Assembly (NCBI GenBank): GCA_016223105.1
Contig: JACRPR010000091.1
Location: 1-64,000 of the forward strand
From: Chloroflexota bacterium
GTDB lineage: Bacteria > Chloroflexota > Anaerolineae > UBA4142
DNA length: 64,000 nt
Direction of reading: 5' to 3'
Of this stretch, positions 628-45,705 are shown one piece after another (the stretch's first letter is position 1; every line of letters begins with the position of its first letter). The notes under the pieces were generated by a model that was not told the DNA's origin, did no database searches, and saw only the letters and a list, made by a program, of their open reading frames with translations. The position numbers and the translations under genes are program-made.

Positions 628-1244
628 TCACCATCGCATTAGCTAAAGGTCGCTTGCTCGAACCGTCGCTAAAAATTTTTGAAACGCTCGGTTACGACAC
701 GCGCGAGATTCGCGAGTCGCGCAAACTCGTTGTGGAAAATCACGGCGCGCGATTTTTGTTGGCAAAGCCAATGGATGTGCCGATCTATGTCGAGTACGGC
801 GCGGCGGATGTCGGCATTGTGGGGCAGGACGCGTTGCGCGAGAGCGGTGTCAATGTGTACGAGCCGCTCGCGCTCGATTACGGACATTGCCGCTTGATGG
901 TCGCCGGCAAGCCGGACTATCGTGATGCCGAGTGGCGCATGATCGCGGGCTTGCGCGTCGCGACGAAATATCCGCGCATCGCGCAAAAATTTTTCGCGGC
1001 GCGCGGTCTCTCGGTCGAGATCATCGAGGTGTACGGCTCAGTCGAACTCGCGCCCGCGGTCGGGCTTGCGGATTTGATTGTGGATGTCGTTGACACCGGG
1101 CGTACGCTCCGCGCGAACGGCTTGATCGAACTCGACCAGGTTTTAACATCACAAGCCGCGTTGATCGTGAATCGCGCATCGCACACGTTGCGCGCGGGGG
1201 AGATTCGTGAGTTGATCGAGAAGATCGAAAATCGTAATTCTTAA
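624..1244 (+). CDS. hisG: ATP phosphoribosyltransferase, short form
   Basis: ITIALAKGRLLEPSLKIFE..., VGIVGQDALRE, DLIVDVVDTGRTLRANGL. Confidence 0.95.
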   Translation: MITIALAKGRLLEPSLKIFETLGYDTREIRESRKLVVENHGARFLLAKPMDVPIYVEYGAADVGIVGQDALRESGVNVYEPLALDYGHCRLMVAGKPDYRDAEWRMIAGLRVATKYPRIAQKFFAARGLSVEIIEVYGSVELAPAVGLADLIVDVVDTGRTLRANGLIELDQVLTSQAALIVNRASHTLRAGEIRELIEKIENRNS

Positions 1245-1312
1245 TTCGTAATTCAAAATTCATCTGCGCGTCCAAGCCGAATTACGAATTACGAATTAAG
1301 AATTCCGAATTC
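1230..1312. repeat. heptad inverted array (AATTCGT/AATTACG words), hisG-hisD gap
   Basis: ATTCTTAATTCGTAATTCAAAATTC opposite GAATTACGAATTACGAATTAAGAATTC. Confidence 0.85.
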
Positions 1313-1322
1313 AGAGGTTGCC

Positions 1323-2645
1323 TTGATTCCAATTATTTATGGCACACACGCCGGGCGCGAAAAAATTTTGAAACAGCGCGGGTACGCGGAAAAAGAATAT
1401 CCGCAAGCATTGTTGGAGAAATTACACAAAACGTTTGGCGAAACGTTGACGCCGGAGCAAGCGGTCGCGCGCATCTTGTTCGATGTTCGCGCGCGCGGCG
1501 ATGACGCCGTGCGCGAGTGGACGCGCACATTTGATCGCGTCGAACTCGCGCACATTCGAGTTACCCAAGACGAAATTGACGCGGCGTACGCGGAAACGCC
1601 GGTCGCAGTGCGCGATGCGATGGAACTCGCCGCGTCGCGCATTCGCGTGTTCCATGAAAAACACAAACCGAAATCGTGGATTGATTGGCAGGCGGGTAGC
1701 GCGCTCGGTCAACGGATCATTCCGCTCGCGCGCGTCGGCATTTACGTCCCAGGTGGAACCGCGCCACTGCCATCGTCGCTGTTAATGTCCGCGATTCCCG
1801 CGCTCGTCGCTAGCGTGCGCGAGGTTGCAATCGCGACGCCGCCCAAGATCGCGCCCGCGATTCTCGCGGCGGCAAAAATCGCGGGCGTCTCGCGCGTGTA
1901 CGCGATGGGCGGCGCGCAAGCGATTGCCGCGCTCGCGTTCGGCACCGCGTCGGTCGCGCGCGTGGATAAAATTGTCGGCGCGGGCGGATTGTTCACGACG
2001 CTCGCGAAAAGCCAGGTCTTTGGCGCGGTCGGGATTGATGGTTTGTACGGTCCGACCGAAACGATGCTCATCGCGGACGATTCCGCGAATCCCGCGTGGG
2101 TCGCGTCCGATTTGCTCGCGCAAGCCGAACACGATGTACTCGCAACCGCAATCCTCATTACCACTTCGCAATTATTCGCGAACCAGGTCGCGAATGAAAT
2201 CGAAAAACAAATCGCGCATCTCTCTCGAATCTCTATCATCTCTCAATCTCTCTCTTCGCAAGGCGCGATCATTGTCGTCGAAAATTTGGATGAGGCGATG
2301 GAACTTGCGAACGCGTTTGCGCCGGAGCATTTGTGTTTGTTGATTCGCGATGCGTGGAACTGGGTCGGCAAAGTGGAACACGCGGGCGGCATCTTTGTCG
2401 GTGAGTGGACGAACGAGGCGCTCGGTGATTACGTGATCGGTCCGAGTCACATTATGCCGACGGCTGGCACCGCGCGATTTTCGTCGCCGCTGAACGTGAA
2501 CGATTTTGTGAAAATCACGAGCGTGTTCAGCGTGAGCGCGCGCGAAGCACACGATCTAGGCGAACGCGCGGCGATTCTCGCGGAGACGGAAGGGTTGACC
2601 GCGCACGCGAGCGCGATTCGGAGACGGATGATCCCAAATATGTGA
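1323..2645 (+). CDS. hisD: histidinol dehydrogenase (TTG start)
   Basis: VGIYVPGGTAPLPSSLLMSAIPA, GAQAIAALAFGT, GPTETMLIADD, NEALGDYVIGPSHIMPTAGTARF. Confidence 0.95.
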   Translation: MIPIIYGTHAGREKILKQRGYAEKEYPQALLEKLHKTFGETLTPEQAVARILFDVRARGDDAVREWTRTFDRVELAHIRVTQDEIDAAYAETPVAVRDAMELAASRIRVFHEKHKPKSWIDWQAGSALGQRIIPLARVGIYVPGGTAPLPSSLLMSAIPALVASVREVAIATPPKIAPAILAAAKIAGVSRVYAMGGAQAIAALAFGTASVARVDKIVGAGGLFTTLAKSQVFGAVGIDGLYGPTETMLIADDSANPAWVASDLLAQAEHDVLATAILITTSQLFANQVANEIEKQIAHLSRISIISQSLSSQGAIIVVENLDEAMELANAFAPEHLCLLIRDAWNWVGKVEHAGGIFVGEWTNEALGDYVIGPSHIMPTAGTARFSSPLNVNDFVKITSVFSVSAREAHDLGERAAILAETEGLTAHASAIRRRMIPNM

Positions 2646-2659
2646 TGGAGGAATTGGCA

Positions 2660-3544
2660 ATGAACCTCTTCGCAAGTTTTCACAACGAACAAGGCAGAAA
2701 ATTTCTTGATCAGGGCGTTTTGGAAAAAGCCGAAGCAGCTTTTCGCAAGTCGCTTGATCTATCGCCAAATTCATCGGCAACTTGGTACAACCTGGGCTTG
2801 GTTTACAAAAAGCAAAGAAAATGGAACGTGTGTCTTGAATGTAATCAACGTGCAACTCAGTTGAATCCGCGAGACGAAGCCGCTTTGTGGAATCTGGGTA
2901 TTGCGGCTACGGCTTTGTCTCAATGGAATCTCGCGAGACACGCTTGGAAGAAATGCGGAGTTGAAATACCTGATGGTGATGGTGAGTTGACAATGGATTT
3001 GGGACCGGTTCCGATTCGATTAAACCCGGATGATTCGGGAGAAGTGATTTGGTGCTCACGGATTGATCCTGCCCGCGCGATTATTCGCGGTGTGCCGTTG
3101 CCAAGTTCATGTCATCGTTTTGGCGATGTATTACTTCACGATGGCGCGCTAAACGGATTTCGAATTATTAACGGCAATAAAATTCCGGTTTTCGATGAAC
3201 TTGAATTACTTGAACCATCCAAATTTTCTACGTTTCAAGTCGCGGTGACTGCGGATTCGCTTGACGACATTCATGCGCTAATTGAATTGGCTTTTCAACA
3301 AAATATGGGGGCAGAGGATTGGTCAACCATCAGACCGCTCTGCAAGGAATGTAGTGAAGGTACTCCACATGAGCATCCAGAAGATCAATTTCAACCTCAA
3401 GCCGAAAGGCGCATTGGCATTGCCGCGATGAGCGAAATGGAACTCGATGAAATTTTAGAGAGTTGGCTCATTAGCCATCCCACCGCTCGATTAATCAGTG
3501 TCAACTGTGTTTTGAAAAGTTGGAACGATCGGGTAGGTGAGTGA
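2660..3544 (+). CDS. TPR-repeat protein, unknown function, inserted in his operon
   Basis: TPR motifs (AEAAFRKSLDLSPNSSATWYNLGLVYKKQRKWNVC...); GGAGG upstream of ATG 2660; visibly lower GC than neighbours. Confidence 0.75.
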   Translation: MNLFASFHNEQGRKFLDQGVLEKAEAAFRKSLDLSPNSSATWYNLGLVYKKQRKWNVCLECNQRATQLNPRDEAALWNLGIAATALSQWNLARHAWKKCGVEIPDGDGELTMDLGPVPIRLNPDDSGEVIWCSRIDPARAIIRGVPLPSSCHRFGDVLLHDGALNGFRIINGNKIPVFDELELLEPSKFSTFQVAVTADSLDDIHALIELAFQQNMGAEDWSTIRPLCKECSEGTPHEHPEDQFQPQAERRIGIAAMSEMELDEILESWLISHPTARLISVNCVLKSWNDRVGE

Positions 3545-3641
3545 TGTTCCACAATCGGAAAGACCAGCAAGACAGCCGCGCGTAGGTGCGGAATGTTCGC
3601 AAAGACAATTACGATTGTCGCTCAATGGAAGGAAAAGCATA

Positions 3642-4139
3642 ATGCGATGGAGTAAATTGAAAACAACAATCGAAAATCACTTTGCCGCTTCAGTGATCGG
3701 TCGTGTCGCGTTACACGCGACGCGGTATCGCCAAGCACACGATGACGAGGGAAGAGGGTGGATTACTGTTGACAGGAAAGAAGCGTGGAACTTGTGCACG
3801 TTTCGATATTGGCGCGCGCTCTATGAAACAAAGGAAAAATTTGATACAGAACCGGACGTTTCCGCTTGGGAAGCATACTATCTCAGCGCGGCAGAGATAG
3901 AAAAACAAGGCATTCTTTCTCTCGAAAGATTTTACATTACGCTCGAAGACTATAACAATCTTTCCATCAAGCAAGCGCTTGATTCGAAAAGTGTTCTGAT
4001 CCAAGCGTTAGCGATGTTGGACAAACGGCTTGGGAAACGGAGATTGCGTTCTCTTCAACTTGTACCTGACGCGCATCCGATGGTTCGATATTTTTACACA
4101 TTTCGATTGAAAGCCGAAGGCATAGATGGCAATTCTTGA
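3642..4139 (+). CDS. conserved hypothetical (SF0329-like family)
   Basis: MRWSKLKTTIENHFAASVIGRVALHATRYR...DDEGRGWITVD resembles this family from memory; overlaps hisC start. Confidence 0.6.
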   Translation: MRWSKLKTTIENHFAASVIGRVALHATRYRQAHDDEGRGWITVDRKEAWNLCTFRYWRALYETKEKFDTEPDVSAWEAYYLSAAEIEKQGILSLERFYITLEDYNNLSIKQALDSKSVLIQALAMLDKRLGKRRLRSLQLVPDAHPMVRYFYTFRLKAEGIDGNS

Positions 4140-5280
4140 CCCTACCCAACTCATCCGCGCCGACCTCAGCGATTTTCCGCCGTACTCGATGGGGCACGTT
4201 CCGCTCGCGGATTTGGATCATCTCGTCAAATTAGATTTGAACGAGAATCCGTACGGCGCGTCGCCCAAAGCAATTGCCGCGCTCGCGCAAATGCGACACT
4301 ATCATCGCTACATCGGTCAAGACGAATTGCGCGCGGACATTGCGCGTTACGTCGGCGTGGATGCGGATCACGTCGTTGCGAGCAACGGCGCGGACGAAAT
4401 CATTGACCTGGTGCAACGCGTCTTTATTAATCGCGGCGACGCGATTGTGGATTGCCCGCCGTCGTTCGAAATGTACGCGTTCTTTGCGCGCGTCAACGGC
4501 GCGCGCATCATCAGCGTCCCGCGGCGCGATGATTTTTCGATTGATGTGGAAATGATCGAGTCTGTCATTGCGAGCGAAGCGAAGCAATCCCCAACGCGCG
4601 GATCGGAGATTGTTTCGTCGCGCGATCCTTCGACTCCGCTTCGCTCTGCTCAGGATGCGCTCCTCGCAATGACAAAGTTACTCTTCCTCACCAGACCCAA
4701 CAATCCCGACGGCGGCATCACCGCGCACGCGGACATTGAACGTTTGCTTGCCTTGCCGGTGATCCTGGTATTGGACGAAGCATACGCGGAATTTGCCGGC
4801 GAGAGTTACGCGGCGCGCGTGCCAACGCAATCGAATCTGATCGTTCTGCGAACGTTCAGCAAGTGGGCGGGGCTGGCGAGTTTGCGTGTCGGTTATTGCA
4901 TCGCGCCGAAAGTAGTCGCCGCGAAAATTTTGCAGATCAAGCCGCCCGAAAATGTGAACGCCGCCGGCATCGTCGCCGCGCGCGCCTCGCTCGCGGATCG
5001 CGATTACTTGATGGACAACGTGCGCCGCATTGTCGCGGAACGCGAACGCTTGTCCGGCGAACTCGCGCAGGTCGGATTTTTGCAACCGTTGCCGAGCCAC
5101 GCGAACTTTCTCTTGTGCCGCGTGATCAATCGCGACGCCAAAGCGATTCAAACCGCGCTCGCGCAACGCGACATTTTGATCCGCGCGTTCAAATCGCCGC
5201 GTCTGTCCGATTACATTCGCATCGCGGTCGGCACGCCGGAGCAGGATGCGGTGTTGTTGAGCGCGTTGGGGAATTTATGA
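4126..5280 (+). CDS. hisC: histidinol-phosphate aminotransferase with in-frame palindromic insertion
   Basis: LDLNENPYGASPKA, SNGADEIIDLVQRVF, RPNNPDG, VLDEAYAEFAGES, RTFSKWAGLASLRVGY. Confidence 0.93.
   Translation: MAILDPTQLIRADLSDFPPYSMGHVPLADLDHLVKLDLNENPYGASPKAIAALAQMRHYHRYIGQDELRADIARYVGVDADHVVASNGADEIIDLVQRVFINRGDAIVDCPPSFEMYAFFARVNGARIISVPRRDDFSIDVEMIESVIASEAKQSPTRGSEIVSSRDPSTPLRSAQDALLAMTKLLFLTRPNNPDGGITAHADIERLLALPVILVLDEAYAEFAGESYAARVPTQSNLIVLRTFSKWAGLASLRVGYCIAPKVVAAKILQIKPPENVNAAGIVAARASLADRDYLMDNVRRIVAERERLSGELAQVGFLQPLPSHANFLLCRVINRDAKAIQTALAQRDILIRAFKSPRLSDYIRIAVGTPEQDAVLLSALGNL
4564..4673. repeat. palindromic element inserted in frame in hisC
   Basis: GTCATTGCGAG...CTCGCAATGAC perfect 11-bp ends. 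Confidence 0.85.
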
Positions 5281-5286
5281 TTGTTG

Positions 5287-5370
5287 ATGGAGGTTGGAAA
5301 TTGGATGTTGGAGATTAGATTGTTTCGCGTCCGACTTCCAATTTCCAACTTCCAACCTCCAACTTCCAAA
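5287..5370. repeat. heptad inverted array (GTTGGAA/TTCCAAC words), hisC-phosphatase gap
   Basis: GGAGGTTGGAAATTGGATGTTGGAG opposite CTTCCAATTTCCAACTTCCAACCTCC. Confidence 0.85.
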
Positions 5371-6005
5371 TGCCCAAACTTTATCTGATCAAACACTCGA
5401 TGCCCGAACTCGATCCGAACGTGCCTGCACCCGATTGGCATCTCGGCGAATTGGGGCGTGCGCGGAGTGAACTGCTCGCGCGCAAATTGTCCGCGTATCC
5501 GCTCGATGTGATCGTGAGCAGTGTCGAGCCGAAAGCAATCGAGACCGCGCAGATCGTCGCGGCGCGCTTGAACAAGCCGCACGAAATCGCGCAAGGATTG
5601 CACGAGCACGAGCGGCGCAATGTGCCGTTTATGCCGCGTGCAGAACTCGAAGCGCGCGTCGCGGAATTTTTCGCCAAGCCGAGCGAGTTGGTGCTGGGCA
5701 GTGAAACCGCGAACCAGGCACACGCGCGCTTTGCGAACGCGATCCATCGCGTGCTCGAAAAATATCCGCAAAAAAATATCGCGGTCGTCGCGCACGGCAC
5801 GGTGATTTCGCTTTTCGTCGCGCGCACACAACCGATGCCGTTTGAATTTTGGAAGCGGTTGGGTCTGCCGTCAATTGTCGTACTCGATGTTGGATGTTGG
5901 ATATTGGAAGTTGGATATGCCACATCAAGTCAAACTATCCAACATCCAATTTCTAATTCCCAATTCCCAATTACCATCCAAGAGGTGATCGAAAATGTCG
6001 AATGA
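5370..6005 (+). CDS. histidine phosphatase superfamily protein with KHS instead of RHG; C-terminus runs into heptad repeats
   Basis: [10 protein letters not shown] at N-terminus, [22 protein letters not shown]; lies between hisC and hisB. Confidence 0.8.
5886..5979. repeat. heptad inverted array, 3' end of phosphatase ORF
   Basis: GATGTTGGATGTTGGATATTGGAAGTTG opposite CTATCCAACATCCAATTTCTAATTCCCAATTCCC. Confidence 0.85.
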
Positions 6006-6522
6006 ACGCGCCGCAACCGTTGAACGCAAAACAAAAGAGACCGCGATCGCGATCACGTTGAATCTCGATGGCGCGGGCAACGCGGACATTGCAACCGGCG
6101 TGCCGATCCTCGATCATTTGCTTTCGCACGTCGCGGTGCACGGGCTTTTCGATTTGCACATTCGCGCGACCGGCGATCTTGACATTGACGCGCATCACAC
6201 GACTGAAGATGGGCACGCGTACGTGCCGATGGATGAAGCGCTCGCGCTCGTCGCGATTGATTTGAGTGGTCGCGCGTACGCGGTGATCGACGCGCCATTC
6301 GCCGCGCCGATGATCGGCGCATTGCCCGCGAGTTTGATCGCGCATTTTTTTGAATCGCTCGCGACGCACGCGCGGATGAATTTGCACGCGAAAATTTTTT
6401 ACGGACGCGACGATCATCACAAAGCCGAAGCGATGTTCAAAGCGCTCGGTCGCGCGCTCGCAATGGCTGTCGCGTTCGACGCGCGGCGCGTGGGAATCGC
6501 TTCGACAAAAGGAACTCTGTGA
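5995..6522 (+). CDS. hisB: imidazoleglycerol-phosphate dehydratase (monofunctional)
   Basis: [48 protein letters not shown]. Confidence 0.95.
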
Positions 6523-6530
6523 GATTTATG

Positions 6531-6600
6531 ATCTTCGATTTCTGATTTCTGATTTGAGCGTCGCACAGAAAATCAGAAATCAGAAATCGAAAATCGAAAA
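6531..6600. repeat. heptad inverted array (TTCTGAT/AATCAGA words), hisB-hisH gap
   Basis: CGATTTCTGATTTCTGATTTG opposite AAAATCAGAAATCAGAAATCGAAAATCG. Confidence 0.85.
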
Positions 6601-7250
6601 TGGTGAATATGATCGCGATTATTGATTACGGTATGGGCAATCTCCGTAGCGCGTTGCGCGGCATCGAAAAGGTCGGCGGCGCGGCGCGGATCATTCAATC
6701 GCCGCGCGAAATGATTGGCGCGCGTGGAATCGTTTTGCCCGGCGATGGCGCGTTCGGGCAAGCGATGATCAATTTGCGCGCGGCGGGATGGATCGATCCG
6801 TTGAAAAACGCGTGCGTGGCTGGCGTTCCATTCCTGGGAATTTGCGTTGGGATGCAATTGCTGTTCGAGACGAGCGAAGAGATGGGACAACACGCAGGGC
6901 TGGGAATTTTCGCGGGCGCGGTCAAACGCTTTCCGCGCGGACTCAAAGTTCCGCAGATGGGTTGGAATCAATTGCACATCGTAGGGGCGGATCACTCTGA
7001 GCGGAGCGAAGCGGAGTCGAAGAGTGCGTCCCTCCTGCGCGATGTTCCAAACGACGGTTACGCGTATTTCGTGCACTCGTACTATTGCGCGCCGCGCGAT
7101 TCATCCATCACGCTCGCGACGACCGATTATGGAATTGATTTCGCGTCCATTGTCGGACGTGCGAATGTCTTCGGCACACAATTCCACCCAGAGAAAAGCC
7201 AGGTCGTCGGATTGAAAATCCTGGAAAATTTTGTGACGCTGACAAAATGA
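6600..7250 (+). CDS. hisH: imidazole glycerol phosphate synthase subunit HisH with in-frame palindromic insertion
   Basis: IAIIDYGMGNLRSA, GICVGMQLLFE, VPQMGWNQLH, GTQFHPEKSQ. Confidence 0.93.
   Translation: MVNMIAIIDYGMGNLRSALRGIEKVGGAARIIQSPREMIGARGIVLPGDGAFGQAMINLRAAGWIDPLKNACVAGVPFLGICVGMQLLFETSEEMGQHAGLGIFAGAVKRFPRGLKVPQMGWNQLHIVGADHSERSEAESKSASLLRDVPNDGYAYFVHSYYCAPRDSSITLATTDYGIDFASIVGRANVFGTQFHPEKSQVVGLKILENFVTLTK
6981..7036. repeat. GTAGGGGCGGATCACTCT...AGAGTGCGTCCCTCC element inserted in frame in hisH
   Basis: Imperfect inverted repeat inside ORF; encodes VGADHSERSEAESKSASLL. Confidence 0.75.
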
Positions 7251-7326
7251 TTTTCGATTTTGGATTTGCGATTTTCGATTGGGAAGCGTAAATCCAAAAT
7301 CAGAAATCAGAAATCAGAAATCGAAA
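7251..7326. repeat. heptad inverted array, hisH-hisA gap
   Basis: TTTTCGATTTTGGATTTGCGATTTTCGATT opposite AATCCAAAATCAGAAATCAGAAATCAGAAATCGAAA. Confidence 0.85.
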
Positions 7327-8055
7327 ATGATTATTTTCCCCGCGATTGATTTACGCAATGGACGCGTCGTGCGTTTGCAACAGGGGCGCGCGGATGCGGA
7401 AACCAAATACAGCGACGACCCCGCGCAAATCGCGATGCGTTGGCAGAGCGAAGGCGCGCAATGGTTGCACGTCGTCAATCTCGATGGCGCGTTCGGCGAA
7501 GCATCGTCCGCGAATCTCCGCGAATTGTCGGGAATCATTTCGATTGCAAAAATTCCGGTTCAATTCGGCGGCGGCTTGCGCGATCTAACGAGCATCGCAA
7601 CCGCGTTTGAACGCGGGGTCACGCGCGTTGTGATCGGCACGGCGGCAATCGAAAATCCGCAACTCGTGTCCGATGCGATTGCGCGATTCGGCGCGGATCG
7701 GATCGTTGTCGGGATTGACGCGCGCGATGGAATGGTCGCGACGCGCGGTTGGGTCGCGCAATCTCAGGTTAGCGCGATTGATCTCGCGATTCAAATGCGC
7801 GCCCGCGGCATCACGCGCATCGTGTACACCGACATCACGCGCGATGGAATGTTGCGCGGGATTGATGCAGATGCGATGGCGCGCCTCGCGCGCGCCGCGA
7901 ACGTGCGCGTGATCGCCTCGGGCGGCGTCGCAAACGTGAACGATGTGATCGCATTGCGCGCGCACGCGGAAATCGAAGGCGTGATCATCGGGCAGGTGTT
8001 GTACACCGGCGCGGTGATGTTGAAAGAGGCGATTGAGATCGCGCGCATTTTTTGA
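7327..8055 (+). CDS. hisA: ProFAR isomerase
   Basis: MIIFPAIDLRNGRVVRLQQG, VQFGGGLRD, YTDITRDGML, ASGGVANV; start placed after heptad repeat. Confidence 0.95.
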   Translation: MIIFPAIDLRNGRVVRLQQGRADAETKYSDDPAQIAMRWQSEGAQWLHVVNLDGAFGEASSANLRELSGIISIAKIPVQFGGGLRDLTSIATAFERGVTRVVIGTAAIENPQLVSDAIARFGADRIVVGIDARDGMVATRGWVAQSQVSAIDLAIQMRARGITRIVYTDITRDGMLRGIDADAMARLARAANVRVIASGGVANVNDVIALRAHAEIEGVIIGQVLYTGAVMLKEAIEIARIF

Positions 8056-14475: not shown

Positions 14476-14562
14476 TTCAGATTTCAGATTTCAGATTTCA
14501 GATTTCAGATTTTGCCGTAATGGGTTTCAATCTGAAATCTGAAATTTACAATTTGAAATTCA
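14476..14562. repeat. heptad inverted array (TTTCAGA words) filling kinase-regulator gap
   Basis: (TTTCAGA)x5 opposite TCTGAAATCTGAAATTTACAATTTGAAATTC. Confidence 0.85.
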
Positions 14563-24794: not shown

Positions 24795-24885
24795 TGGATT
24801 CTCCAAAGTCAACAGTCGTCAGTGAACAGTCAACAGTCAACAGTCAACTGTTGACTGTTCACTGTTCACTGCCCACTGCCCACTA
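24795..24885. repeat. heptad inverted array (CAACAGT words) between sdhA and sdhB
   Basis: CAACAGTCAACAGTCAACAGTCAACTGTTGACTGTTCACTGTTCACTGCCCACTGCCCACTAG. Confidence 0.85.
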
Positions 24886-34990: not shown

Positions 34991-35857
34991 ATGAGCCAGA
35001 AAATCCAACCTCAAACCTCCAACCTCCAACTTCCAATTTCCAATCTCCAAATCTATCTCGCGATGGTTCGCAAACAACTGATCGTGATGACGCGCTATCC
35101 GATTGATTTCCTCACGAGTTTCGTCCAAATTTTTCTGATCATTTTATTGTTCTCGTTCGCCGCGATCATGTTCGAGTCGCCCGGTGCGAGCGCGTCCGGC
35201 GAATCGAGTGGCAGTGGCGCGGTGATGATGTACGGCTTTGTGCTGTTTATGTTCGCGAGCGATACGTTGTGGAGCATCGGCTACAACATTCGCGAAGAGC
35301 AATACCAGGGCACGCTCGAATCGTTGTATCTCACGCCCGCGTCGAAATTCGCGTCGCTTGTTTCGCGCGTAACGACGATTGTGATTTGGACCGGTTTGCT
35401 TTCGATTGCCGCGATTATTTTCGTACAATTTTTTCTCGGACGCTTGCCGTTTCACAACGTCGGTCTCGCGGCGGTGATCCTGGTTTTCACGCTCGCGGGC
35501 ACATTCGGTATCGGGTTCGCGTTCGCGGCGTACACTTTGCTCGTGAAAGAATCCGCGCAGGCGACCGCGAATTTTTTAGAGTTCGCGATCATGATCTTGT
35601 GCGGAATGTTTTTTCCGTTTCGCGCGTTGCCGGAAATTGTGCAGATGATCTCGCGCGCGATCCCGCTCAGTTACGCGGTGGACGCGTTTCGCTCGACGTT
35701 GATGGGTTATCCGCGCGGCTTTCCTGAACTCGCGCCGATTGAAACCGAGATCGCGATTGTGATCGCGTTTGGAATTTTGTCGCCAATCATCGGGTATTGG
35801 TTGTATCAACGCGCGGAACGCCGCGCGCGCATTGTGGGCAGTCTCGCGGAATTCTAA
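34991..35857 (+). CDS. ABC-2 type permease; N-terminus encoded by heptad array
   Basis: MSQKIQPQTSNLQLPISNLQIYLAMVRKQLIVMTRYP then typical hydrophobic permease. Confidence 0.75.
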   Translation: MSQKIQPQTSNLQLPISNLQIYLAMVRKQLIVMTRYPIDFLTSFVQIFLIILLFSFAAIMFESPGASASGESSGSGAVMMYGFVLFMFASDTLWSIGYNIREEQYQGTLESLYLTPASKFASLVSRVTTIVIWTGLLSIAAIIFVQFFLGRLPFHNVGLAAVILVFTLAGTFGIGFAFAAYTLLVKESAQATANFLEFAIMILCGMFFPFRALPEIVQMISRAIPLSYAVDAFRSTLMGYPRGFPELAPIETEIAIVIAFGILSPIIGYWLYQRAERRARIVGSLAEF

Positions 35858-42441: not shown

Positions 42442-43403
42442 TGGCATCGGCACATACCGCGCTTCCGCGCCAATCCAAAATCAATTTGCGCGCGCGTTCG
42501 CCCTGGGCGCAATTATTTATGCGCCTCGTGCGGAACGTACCAGCATTCATCGGGTTGCTCTTTGTGCTGGCATTTTTCCTGGTCGCGATTTTTGCGAATG
42601 TGCTGTCGCCGTATTCGTACGACAAACAAGACCTGGACAATGTTGAAAAGCCGCCGAGCGCGTTGCACCTGGCGGGCACCGATACGTTGGGTCGCGATAT
42701 GTTGAGCCGGCTGATTTACGGCACGCGCTCCTCCGCCTTCGTCGTCCTCCTAGTAACGGCGGTCAATTTATTGCTCGGCGTTCCGCTCGGCGCAATTGCC
42801 GGCTATTTCGGCGGCGCGGTGGATAATTTCATCATGCGCGTCGCGGATATTCTGTTCGCGTTCCCAGGTTTGCTTTTTACATTTTTGATCGCGGCAACGG
42901 TGCGCCCCGCCATTCTCGATTGGGCGCGCGCGAATGGACTGGGTGATCTCGCGCGCACCGGCTATTTGGATTACGCGGTCGTCATTCTCGCATTGGGCTT
43001 GATCGGTTGGGCAGGGCTCGCGCGTTTCGTGCGCGCCCAAGTGTTGGCGGTCAAAGAACGCGAGTACGTGGTGAGCGCGCGCTCGACTGGTGTGCCGACG
43101 AGCAAGGTCATTCTGCGGCACATTTTGCCGAACGCGCTCGCGCCGATTATCGTGATGCTTTCGATGGGGATGGGTTTCATCGCGTTATCGGAGGGCTATC
43201 TCAGTTTTCTCGGCATCGGACTCCAGCCGCCGAATCCGAGTTGGGGCAACATTATGGCGGAGAACGCCGGGCGATATTGGCGGCGTTACCCGGAAATGTT
43301 GTGGCTCGTGTTCATTCCCGGGTTGTTGTTTACGATCATCGTTCTCGCATTCAGTTTTCTGGGCGATGGTTTGAATGAAGCGTTGAATCCGGAAATAGAT
43401 TGA
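42438..43403 (+). CDS. DppC-like oligopeptide permease
   Basis: HLAGTDTLGRDMLSRLIYGTRSS..., VSARSTGVPTSKVILRHILPNALAPIIV. Confidence 0.92.
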   Translation: MMASAHTALPRQSKINLRARSPWAQLFMRLVRNVPAFIGLLFVLAFFLVAIFANVLSPYSYDKQDLDNVEKPPSALHLAGTDTLGRDMLSRLIYGTRSSAFVVLLVTAVNLLLGVPLGAIAGYFGGAVDNFIMRVADILFAFPGLLFTFLIAATVRPAILDWARANGLGDLARTGYLDYAVVILALGLIGWAGLARFVRAQVLAVKEREYVVSARSTGVPTSKVILRHILPNALAPIIVMLSMGMGFIALSEGYLSFLGIGLQPPNPSWGNIMAENAGRYWRRYPEMLWLVFIPGLLFTIIVLAFSFLGDGLNEALNPEID

Positions 43404-43576
43404 TTGCTGATTTTTGATTTCTGATTTGAAAATCCGGTGACGGAGTCGAGCGTTTACGCGGTTAACCGATTGACAAGCAACCCGCTAAAGCGGGGAGTCC
43501 AATCTCGCGCAATGATCAAATCATAAATCATAAATCATAAATCATAAATCATAAATCATAAATCGCAAATCTTAAA
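43401..43576. repeat. composite: heptad arms flanking two-hairpin element
   Basis: GATTGCTGATTTTTGATTTCTGATTTG ... T4 ... AATGATCAAATCATAAAT(CATAAAT)n CGCAAATC. Confidence 0.8.
43442..43500 (-). repeat. 58-60 bp two-hairpin element, copy T4
   Basis: GGAGTCGAGCGTTTACGCGGTT...CCCGCTAAAGCGGGGAGTCC. Confidence 0.8.
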
Positions 43577-43593
43577 TTCTCCACGGAGTTGCA

Positions 43594-45604: not shown

Positions 45605-45705
45605 AGAAGAGATTGAGAGATTGGAGATTGGAAATTGGAAGTTAGATGTTGGAGATTAGATTCCAACTTCCAATCTCCAACGTCCAATTTCTAATTTCCG
45701 ATCAT
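45605..45705. repeat. heptad inverted array (TTGGAGA/TCCAACT words)
   Basis: GAGATTGGAGATTGGAAATTGGAAG... opposite TTCCAACTTCCAATCTCCAACGTCCAATTTC. Confidence 0.8.

What the first reader, a model, noticed from the sequence alone, without database searches (positions are those of the whole stretch)
1230..7326. Locus-specific heptad inverted repeats occupy his-operon gaps almost from stop codon to start codon
In four his-operon gaps (hisG-hisD, hisC-phosphatase, hisB-hisH, hisH-hisA) most of the spacer is an inverted pair of 7-bp-periodic word arrays, and a fifth array spans the end of the phosphatase ORF. Words differ by locus (AATTCGT, GTTGGAA, GATGTTG, TTCTGAT), yet the two arms of each locus match each other, so arms appear to evolve together. 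Arrays run into stop codons (hisG ends ...AATCGTAATTCTTAA) and start codons (CCAAATG, CGAAAATG). They look like exchangeable inter-cistronic spacers or RNA hairpins that may couple or insulate translation. Heptanucleotide repeats (cyanobacterial STRRs) and translated forms such as KSEIRNPKSEI are known from databases; gap-filling geometry and arm co-evolution are what I would follow up.
Basis: partly seen in the sequence, partly recalled or inferred. Interest (0 to 1): 0.78.

Follow-up and report, generated by a model that had tools for sequence, protein, structure and literature searches.

The report
Inward-facing short-repeat pairs between genes
The spaces between this bacterium's histidine genes are filled by pairs of short repeated DNA words that always face each other, apparently inserted just after a stop codon and differing from species to species, which points to a poorly described, oriented kind of repeat element (also found in phages) rather than to a conserved RNA switch.

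Summary
In detail: five his-operon sites carry inverted arrays of 7-nt words, and lag 7 is the outstanding period in the window. Such arrays occur genome-wide, in other Chloroflexota and in phage contigs. They are not gap-exclusive: many sit inside genes, in frame in conserved enzymes (MutL, HypF, this window's phosphatase). Units are a constant core plus 2-3 variable bases (GATT-NNN, CAGT-NNN, TTGGA-NN); 8- to 10-nt relatives use the same junctions. Two results stand out. (1) Polarity is near-absolute: cores point inward (> loop <). Inside-out pairs of identical composition are almost absent (GATT: 2 of 251 Chloroflexota genomes against 16; viral stretches GATT 63:0, CAGT at least 120:0). (2) Pairs start at the upstream stop codon (median -1 nt) and end about 17 nt before the next start; empty orthologous junctions are mostly 2-25 bp, so these look like insertions into tight operon junctions. 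Arm co-evolution is not upheld: spacers hardly mirror, arm mismatches show no G-U excess (79 vs 83 A-C), and orthologous arms diverge separately. Best reading: oriented DNA-level repeat elements, related to the heptad repeats of Xanthomonas and cyanobacteria. The agent that spreads them is unknown.

The parts
1232..1308 (+). hisG-hisD pair, AATTC-NN core: left arm 1232-1261 (overlaps the hisG stop codon at 1242-1244), centre 1262-1278, right arm 1279-1308
5288..5361 (+). hisC-phosphatase pair, TTGG-NNN core: left arm 5288-5312, centre 5313-5336, right arm 5337-5361
5881..5977 (+). pair inside the 3' end of the phosphatase ORF (left array 5881-5916, right array 5944-5977); with flanks, 72 bp longer in frame than the orthologues in G010 and G012
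6530..6595 (+). hisB-hisH pair, GATT-NNN core: left arm 6530-6555, centre 6556-6569, right arm 6570-6595
7249..7328 (+). hisH-hisA pair, GATT-NNN core: left array 7249-7280 (starts in the hisH stop codon), right array 7290-7328 (runs to the hisA start); arms carry different spacers
14481..14559 (.). same kind of pair between co-directional minus-strand genes
24813..24878 (.). CAGT-NNN pair between co-directional minus-strand genes
35004..35050 (+). single array inside the N-terminal end of an ABC-2 transporter ORF
43401..43577 (.). GATT arrays 43401-43427 and 43518-43577, inward-facing, with another palindrome in the centre
45626..45703 (.). TTGG/GATT-type pair in a co-directional gap

Best explanation
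These are small non-coding, oriented repeat elements: two arrays of a short core plus a variable 2-3-nt spacer, facing inward around an unrelated centre. They appear in the chromosome as insertions. In operons the tolerated spot is the few bases between a stop codon and the next ribosome-binding site, so an insert of about 60 bp looks like a spacer that fills the gap; inside genes they survive in frame. Once present, word and length change quickly while the junction stays occupied or is re-occupied. Shown here: inward polarity, core/spacer build, stop-codon geometry, short empty orthologous junctions, turnover of words, genic copies, presence in phage contigs. Inferred: spread by an oriented DNA-level process that reads the cores from outside inward, and gain or loss of units by slippage between cores (arrays with intact cores outlive the others). 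Not identified: the enzyme. Any effect on his mRNA is taken to be a by-product.
For: Polarity: inside-out pairs nearly absent for all informative cores in 1.67 Mb, in 251 Chloroflexota genomes for GATT, and in viral contigs for GATT 63:0 and CAGT >=120:0; also in most pairs whose arms have unrelated words (11 inward vs 1 inside-out). Geometry: 5' arm at the stop codon, 3' arm 17 nt before the start, p = 8e-15, shared with other palindromic families of the genome. Insertion: empty orthologous junctions mostly 2-25 bp in two operons, with stop and GAGGT kept at an hdr junction; in-frame 72-bp insert in the phosphatase. DNA level rather than RNA stem: G-U = A-C, unmirrored spacers in 232 viral pairs. 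Genome dialects: words at different junctions of one genome resemble each other beyond chance (p = 0.002).
Against: No agent found: Y1 transposase copies do not track the repeats and Ku is absent from the 37 genomes tested. Centres of same-family pairs in G000 are unrelated, so whole-unit copying is not visible in this genome. No target-site duplication was looked for successfully, because no close strain is held. Chloroflexota GATT pairs show a weak mirrored-spacer excess (0.36 vs 0.22, p = 0.007, n = 22), and co-directional gaps are favoured, which leaves room for some function in the mRNA.
Confidence: 0.55

Rival explanations
1. One reading: RNA hairpins that couple, insulate or stabilise between cistrons. 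A ribosome ending at the stop codon melts the 5' arm and frees the 3' arm and the next ribosome-binding site; both arms are kept complementary by selection.
For: 5' arm overlaps the stop codon and the pair ends about 17 nt before the start; co-directional gaps favoured, strongly so in viral contigs (212 of 219 gap pairs); predicted stems are stable.
Against: No G-U excess among arm mismatches (79 vs 83); spacers unmirrored in viral pairs; inside-out pairs would fold as well but hardly exist; pairs with unrelated arms exist; many arrays lie inside genes. The geometry is equally expected from insertion into a tight junction.
Confidence: 0.13
2. Local replication slippage with fold-back template switching builds tandem words and their inverted copy in place at each junction, without any mobile agent.
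For: Variable unit number, rapid word turnover at fixed junctions, a weak spacer dialect shared by the two arms of a locus, unrelated centres.
Against: Fold-back copying has no reason to give one polarity, since the other strand would give the inside-out pair; the same words recur at many loci and in phages; empty orthologous junctions are short and do not contain the seed word in the cases read.
Confidence: 0.17
3. End-addition: repeats are synthesised on both 3' ends of a break and the ends are then joined, as in telomere fusions, giving an inward pair with the same word and independent spacers.
For: Predicts inward polarity, shared word with unmirrored spacers, unrelated centres and single-arm cases; the inward strand is usually richer in G than C (40 of 58 words G>C, 6 G<C).
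Against: Many words per genome would need many templates; no Ku in 37 genomes; phage contig L304 has similar centres in several copies; no candidate enzyme.
Confidence: 0.08

Closest known systems
(GGGANTN)n heptad repeats of Xanthomonas and GGGGA(T/C)T of Nostoc (Rehm et al. 2015, PMC4692102)
   Same: 7-nt unit with conserved and variable positions; mostly intergenic, some intragenic; 70-75 convergent inverted pairs per Xanthomonas genome, always one arm on each strand; positions kept between species with length and sequence variation
   Different: One G-rich word per organism, studied as G-quadruplexes; only few inverted pairs in Nostoc; there is no account of many words, of periods 8-10, of the inside-out control, or of the stop-to-RBS insertion geometry in the passages read
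TAACTGA direct repeats of Beggiatoaceae, Cyanobacteria and Bacteroidetes (MacGregor 2015, PMC4679880)
   Same: Heptamer arrays in intergenic gaps, some in ORFs in the stop-free orientation
   Different: One word, direct arrays just upstream of start codons, a single inverted case
Cyanobacterial STRR heptanucleotides (Calothrix; cited in PMC4692102) and (GATAGRA)n of Chloroflexus aurantiacus (PMC6749651)
   Same: Tandem heptamers, the second in the same phylum
   Different: Described as tandem repeats or satellites; inverted pairing not described in the passages read
REP / REPIN elements (GTAG- and CGTC-tagged palindromes, PMC3733652)
   Same: Small non-coding palindromic units, often dimers in opposite orientation, mostly between unidirectional or convergent ORFs
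   Different: Conserved 20-40 bp sequence with a terminal tetranucleotide, associated with Y1-type RAYT transposases; here no fixed sequence, and no Y1 association
Rickettsia palindromic elements (RPE; reviewed in PMC10969869)
   Same: Palindromic inserts in frame inside functional genes
   Different: About 150 bp conserved sequence families; no short-period repeat structure

Membership tests
Heptameric tandem repeats (STRR / Xanthomonas-type) | tandem 7-nt units, many loci per genome | tested here: met
   208 strong arrays in 1.05 Mb
Heptameric tandem repeats (STRR / Xanthomonas-type) | partly conserved unit with variable positions | tested here: met
   GATT-NNN, CAGT-NNN and others
Heptameric tandem repeats (STRR / Xanthomonas-type) | one dominant word per genome | tested here: not met
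   58 polar words in several core families in three genomes
Xanthomonas GGGAATC type | inverted pairs in convergent orientation | tested here: met
   82 inward vs 1 inside-out two-arm gaps
Xanthomonas GGGAATC type | runs of three G able to form quadruplexes | tested here: not met
   GGGA-NNN pairs 0 in 1.67 Mb; the main words lack GGG
REP / REPIN | conserved unit sequence shared by copies | tested here: not met
   only cores shared, centres unrelated in G000
REP / REPIN | co-occurring Y1 (RAYT) transposase | tested here: not met
   PF01797 absent in three carriers and common in non-carriers
MITE | target-site duplication and a related insertion sequence | not testable with these tools
   needs close strains with empty and filled sites
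Rickettsia palindromic elements | in-frame insertion in functional genes | tested here: met
   phosphatase +72 bp, MutL, HypF, hisC of G012
Rickettsia palindromic elements | long conserved family sequence | tested here: not met
   arrays share only core words
Structured RNA family | match to an Rfam model at gathering score | tested here: not met
   only sub-threshold miRNA-precursor hits on hairpins
Structured RNA family | compensatory changes or G-U tolerance in the stem | tested here: not met
   G-U 79 vs A-C 83; spacers unmirrored in viral pairs, weak excess in Chloroflexota GATT

The most novel reading that the evidence does not exclude
The inward-facing core-repeat pairs are products of an undescribed oriented DNA process (for example repeat synthesis on both 3' ends of a cut followed by joining, or an oriented mobile element whose recognition site is a degenerate tandem core) active in Chloroflexota and phages, with one rule (core plus 2-3 free bases, > centre <) behind many words and several periods.
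Probability: 0.25. Interest if true: 0.85.

Novelty: new variant of a known kind. Interest (0 to 1): 0.6.

Why it matters
Heptad repeats have been described piecemeal without an accepted origin. A near-absolute polarity rule that holds across unrelated words and in phages, together with stems whose spacers do not pair, argues against the two usual guesses (slippage alone, selected RNA hairpins) and makes the origin testable. It would also explain repeated peptides such as KSEIRN or TNYELRI in predicted proteins as in-frame insertions, and it warns against reading such gaps as regulatory hairpins.

Tried and rejected
Arm co-evolution: not upheld in three tests. RNA stem under selection: no G-U excess. 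Stop-codon supply as the cause of polarity: 28 inward words carry an in-array stop, 22 of the reverse complements do, 18 words have none in either. Y1/RAYT partner: no association. Ku-dependent joining: no Ku in 37 genomes. A shared loop motif (GCGTC in several his centres): not upheld, centres of same-family pairs are unrelated. Known RNA family: none. Shine-Dalgarno replacement: SD frequency 0.45 after heptad pairs vs 0.49 after other gaps. Close-strain comparison: not possible, no second species of this genus was among the relatives returned. Early array counts included a few runs of N, removed from then on.

Full report
WHAT IS THERE. The window is contig C2 of a metagenome assembly (G000, 5.5 Mb in 250 contigs). 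Its closest named HisA relatives are Chloroflexi/Anaerolineae bins, so I take it as Chloroflexota. The his genes were confirmed with NCBIfam. All five arrays are present as described. Lag 7 stands out (307 windows against 0-7 at other lags, harmonic 14 aside), and simulated intergenic DNA gave none in 10 trials against 75 observed.

GENOME-WIDE. I sampled 1.05 Mb of G000 and 0.19 Mb each of relatives G006 and G012 and called genes with a home-made hexamer model. Strong heptad arrays occur at 938 per Mb in non-coding and 100 per Mb in coding DNA; by number 92 of 208 lie in called genes. Genic ones include in-frame inserts in conserved enzymes: MutL (TIGR00585), HypF (TIGR00143), a HATPase domain, and membrane proteins. 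Pooled over the three genomes, 22.6% of co-directional gaps of 40-260 bp and 11.2% of other gaps have an array (p = 0.006). G000 alone is not significant, so the enrichment is modest.

WORDS. Within a family only part of the unit is constant: GATT-NNN, CAGT-NNN, TTGGA-NN, CGTG-NNN, AATTC-NN. Arrays of 8 nt (ATAGT-NNN), 9 nt (ATTTCC-NNN) and 10 nt (ACGCGGA-NNN) follow the same plan and also occur as inverted pairs in such gaps. Variable positions form one contiguous block more often than expected if scattered (134 vs 89 of 351 period-7 arrays). The constant-core rule is approximate; some 8-nt words vary at one or two positions only.

POLARITY. Each word sits on the left arm in one orientation (379 of 383 word counts, both arms of a locus counted). 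Pattern counts over 22 overlapping core definitions in 1.67 Mb give about 123 inward and 4 inside-out pairs; the 4 belong to AATTC, whose AATT is self-complementary. Of gaps with two strong arrays, 82 are inward, 1 inside-out and 5 same-direction; 11 of the inward ones have unrelated words in the two arms. In 251 Chloroflexota genomes the GATT pair is inward in 16 genomes (60 register-matches in G000, up to 295 in another) and inside-out in 2 (3 matches). In IMG/VR it is 63 stretches to 0, and for CAGT at least 120 to 0 (several stretches can come from one contig). The inside-out pattern has the same composition and would fold equally well, so the bias is not about forming a hairpin. Nor does it follow transcription, since an inward pair reads the same on both strands.

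ARMS. If the stem were selected, spacers should mirror across it. In viral pairs they do not: 0.14 mirrored vs 0.16 elsewhere in the same pair (162 CAGT pairs), 0.27 vs 0.28 (70 GATT pairs). Chloroflexota GATT pairs show a weak excess, 0.36 vs 0.22, p = 0.007, n = 22; CAGT, TTGG and CGTG there show none. Arm mismatches on the transcript strand are G-U 79 and A-C 83. For REPs, by contrast, G-T pairing of stem residues was cited in favour of an RNA role (PMC3733652).

INSERTION AND TURNOVER. In 83 co-directional gaps under 130 bp the 5' arm begins at the stop codon (median -1 nt, quartiles -5.5 and 2.5) and the 3' arm ends 17 nt before the start (quartiles 11 and 26.5; p = 8e-15); other periodic and non-periodic hairpins of the genome behave alike. 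In the his operon and in an independent hdr-type operon the same junction carries different words and periods in different genera, and empty junctions are mostly 2-25 bp. For hisB-hisH, G000 has GATTTCT words, G012 CAGTGAA words, G006 a 10-nt ACGCGGA array, G004 GACGGAA words. hisH-hisA is 8 bp in G008 and 18 bp in G011. At one hdr junction the empty site in G001 (TGAACAAGAGGTTGACT) and the filled site in G000 share stop position and GAGGT. In the phosphatase G000 has a 72-bp in-frame heptad insert, G006 a 78-bp unrelated palindrome, and G010 and G012 neither. In hisC, G012 has an in-frame heptad pair near where G000 has another palindrome. Retention of the same word is rarer: hisH-hisA in G000, G004 and G005, where the 5' arm is nearly identical in G000 and G005 and the 3' arm is not. 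Words of different junctions in one genome resemble each other beyond chance (p = 0.002).

PHAGES. Of the viral-contig pairs that could be placed, 212 lie in co-directional gaps, 7 in other gaps and 9 in genes, with the same geometry (median 5 nt after the stop, 19 before the start). L304 encodes Mu-like transposition proteins and an endolysin, L349 a head protease and a major tail protein, so phages carry them. In L304 several copies share centres resembling AAAGGC(C)AAAA while their spacers vary.

MECHANISM. Shown: inward, inserted, quickly turning over, tolerated between stop and ribosome-binding site and in frame in genes. Inferred: an oriented DNA-level process reads the cores from outside inward, and units are then gained and lost by slippage between cores. 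Y1 transposases and Ku do not track the repeats. Unrelated centres in G000 argue against recent transposition of whole units in this genome. The pattern resembles telomere fusions, where repeats grown on two ends are joined; that is recorded as a low-probability rival with its difficulties.

LITERATURE. Convergent heptad pairs were noted in Xanthomonas for one G-rich word (PMC4692102), direct TAACTGA arrays in Beggiatoaceae (PMC4679880), and a GATAGRA heptamer in Chloroflexus (PMC6749651). I found no paper in the held library on a many-word inward rule. Most subscription papers are not held, so novelty is provisional.

LIMITS. Gene calls are home-made; 19% of the genome was sampled; no close strains are held; viral contigs may include host fragments; the word dictionary was learned on the same genomes, but GATT polarity was tested on independent genomes and both GATT and CAGT on viral contigs. 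The hdr operon was chosen because G000 has many arrays there. No effect on expression was tested.

Noticed in passing
window 4564-4673 (inside hisC): In-frame palindromic element GTCATTGCGAGCGAAGCGAAG...CTCGCAATGAC; the GTCATTGCGAG motif has 94 hits in 1.05 Mb of this genome, 19 of them in called genes. It adds residues that are missing in a G015 HisC; G012 has a heptad pair near the same place.
   Followed up: partly
window 6987-7035 (inside hisH): Another short palindrome (CACTCTGAGCGGAGCGAAGCGGAGTCGAAGAGTG) in frame inside HisH.
   Followed up: no
G000 contigs, e.g. window 39353, 47528, 52983: The genome holds several further palindromic families in gaps: AGACCC..GGGTTT, GTAGCATAGCCCCTTGTGGGCG, TTCGACGCTTTAGCGGGT, GGAACACGGAT, GTAGGGGCGA. 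Some lie in the centre of heptad pairs.
   Followed up: partly
L304 and L349 (IMG/VR contigs): Phage contigs in which CAGT-NNN inward pairs occupy 6 of 10 and 6 of 11 gaps of at least 40 bp, between structural or transposition genes.
   Followed up: partly
L210 (G003 hdr-type operon): One genome uses an 8-nt CAATGAGC word at most of its junctions, a genome-wide dialect.
   Followed up: partly
window 2642-4139: Two ORFs (TPR protein and SF0329 family) lie between hisD and hisC; in G004 the hisD-hisC gap is 69 bp.
   Followed up: no
L202 (G019), hisH-hisA gap: The start of hisA appears twice around a run of N, probably an assembly fault.
   Followed up: no
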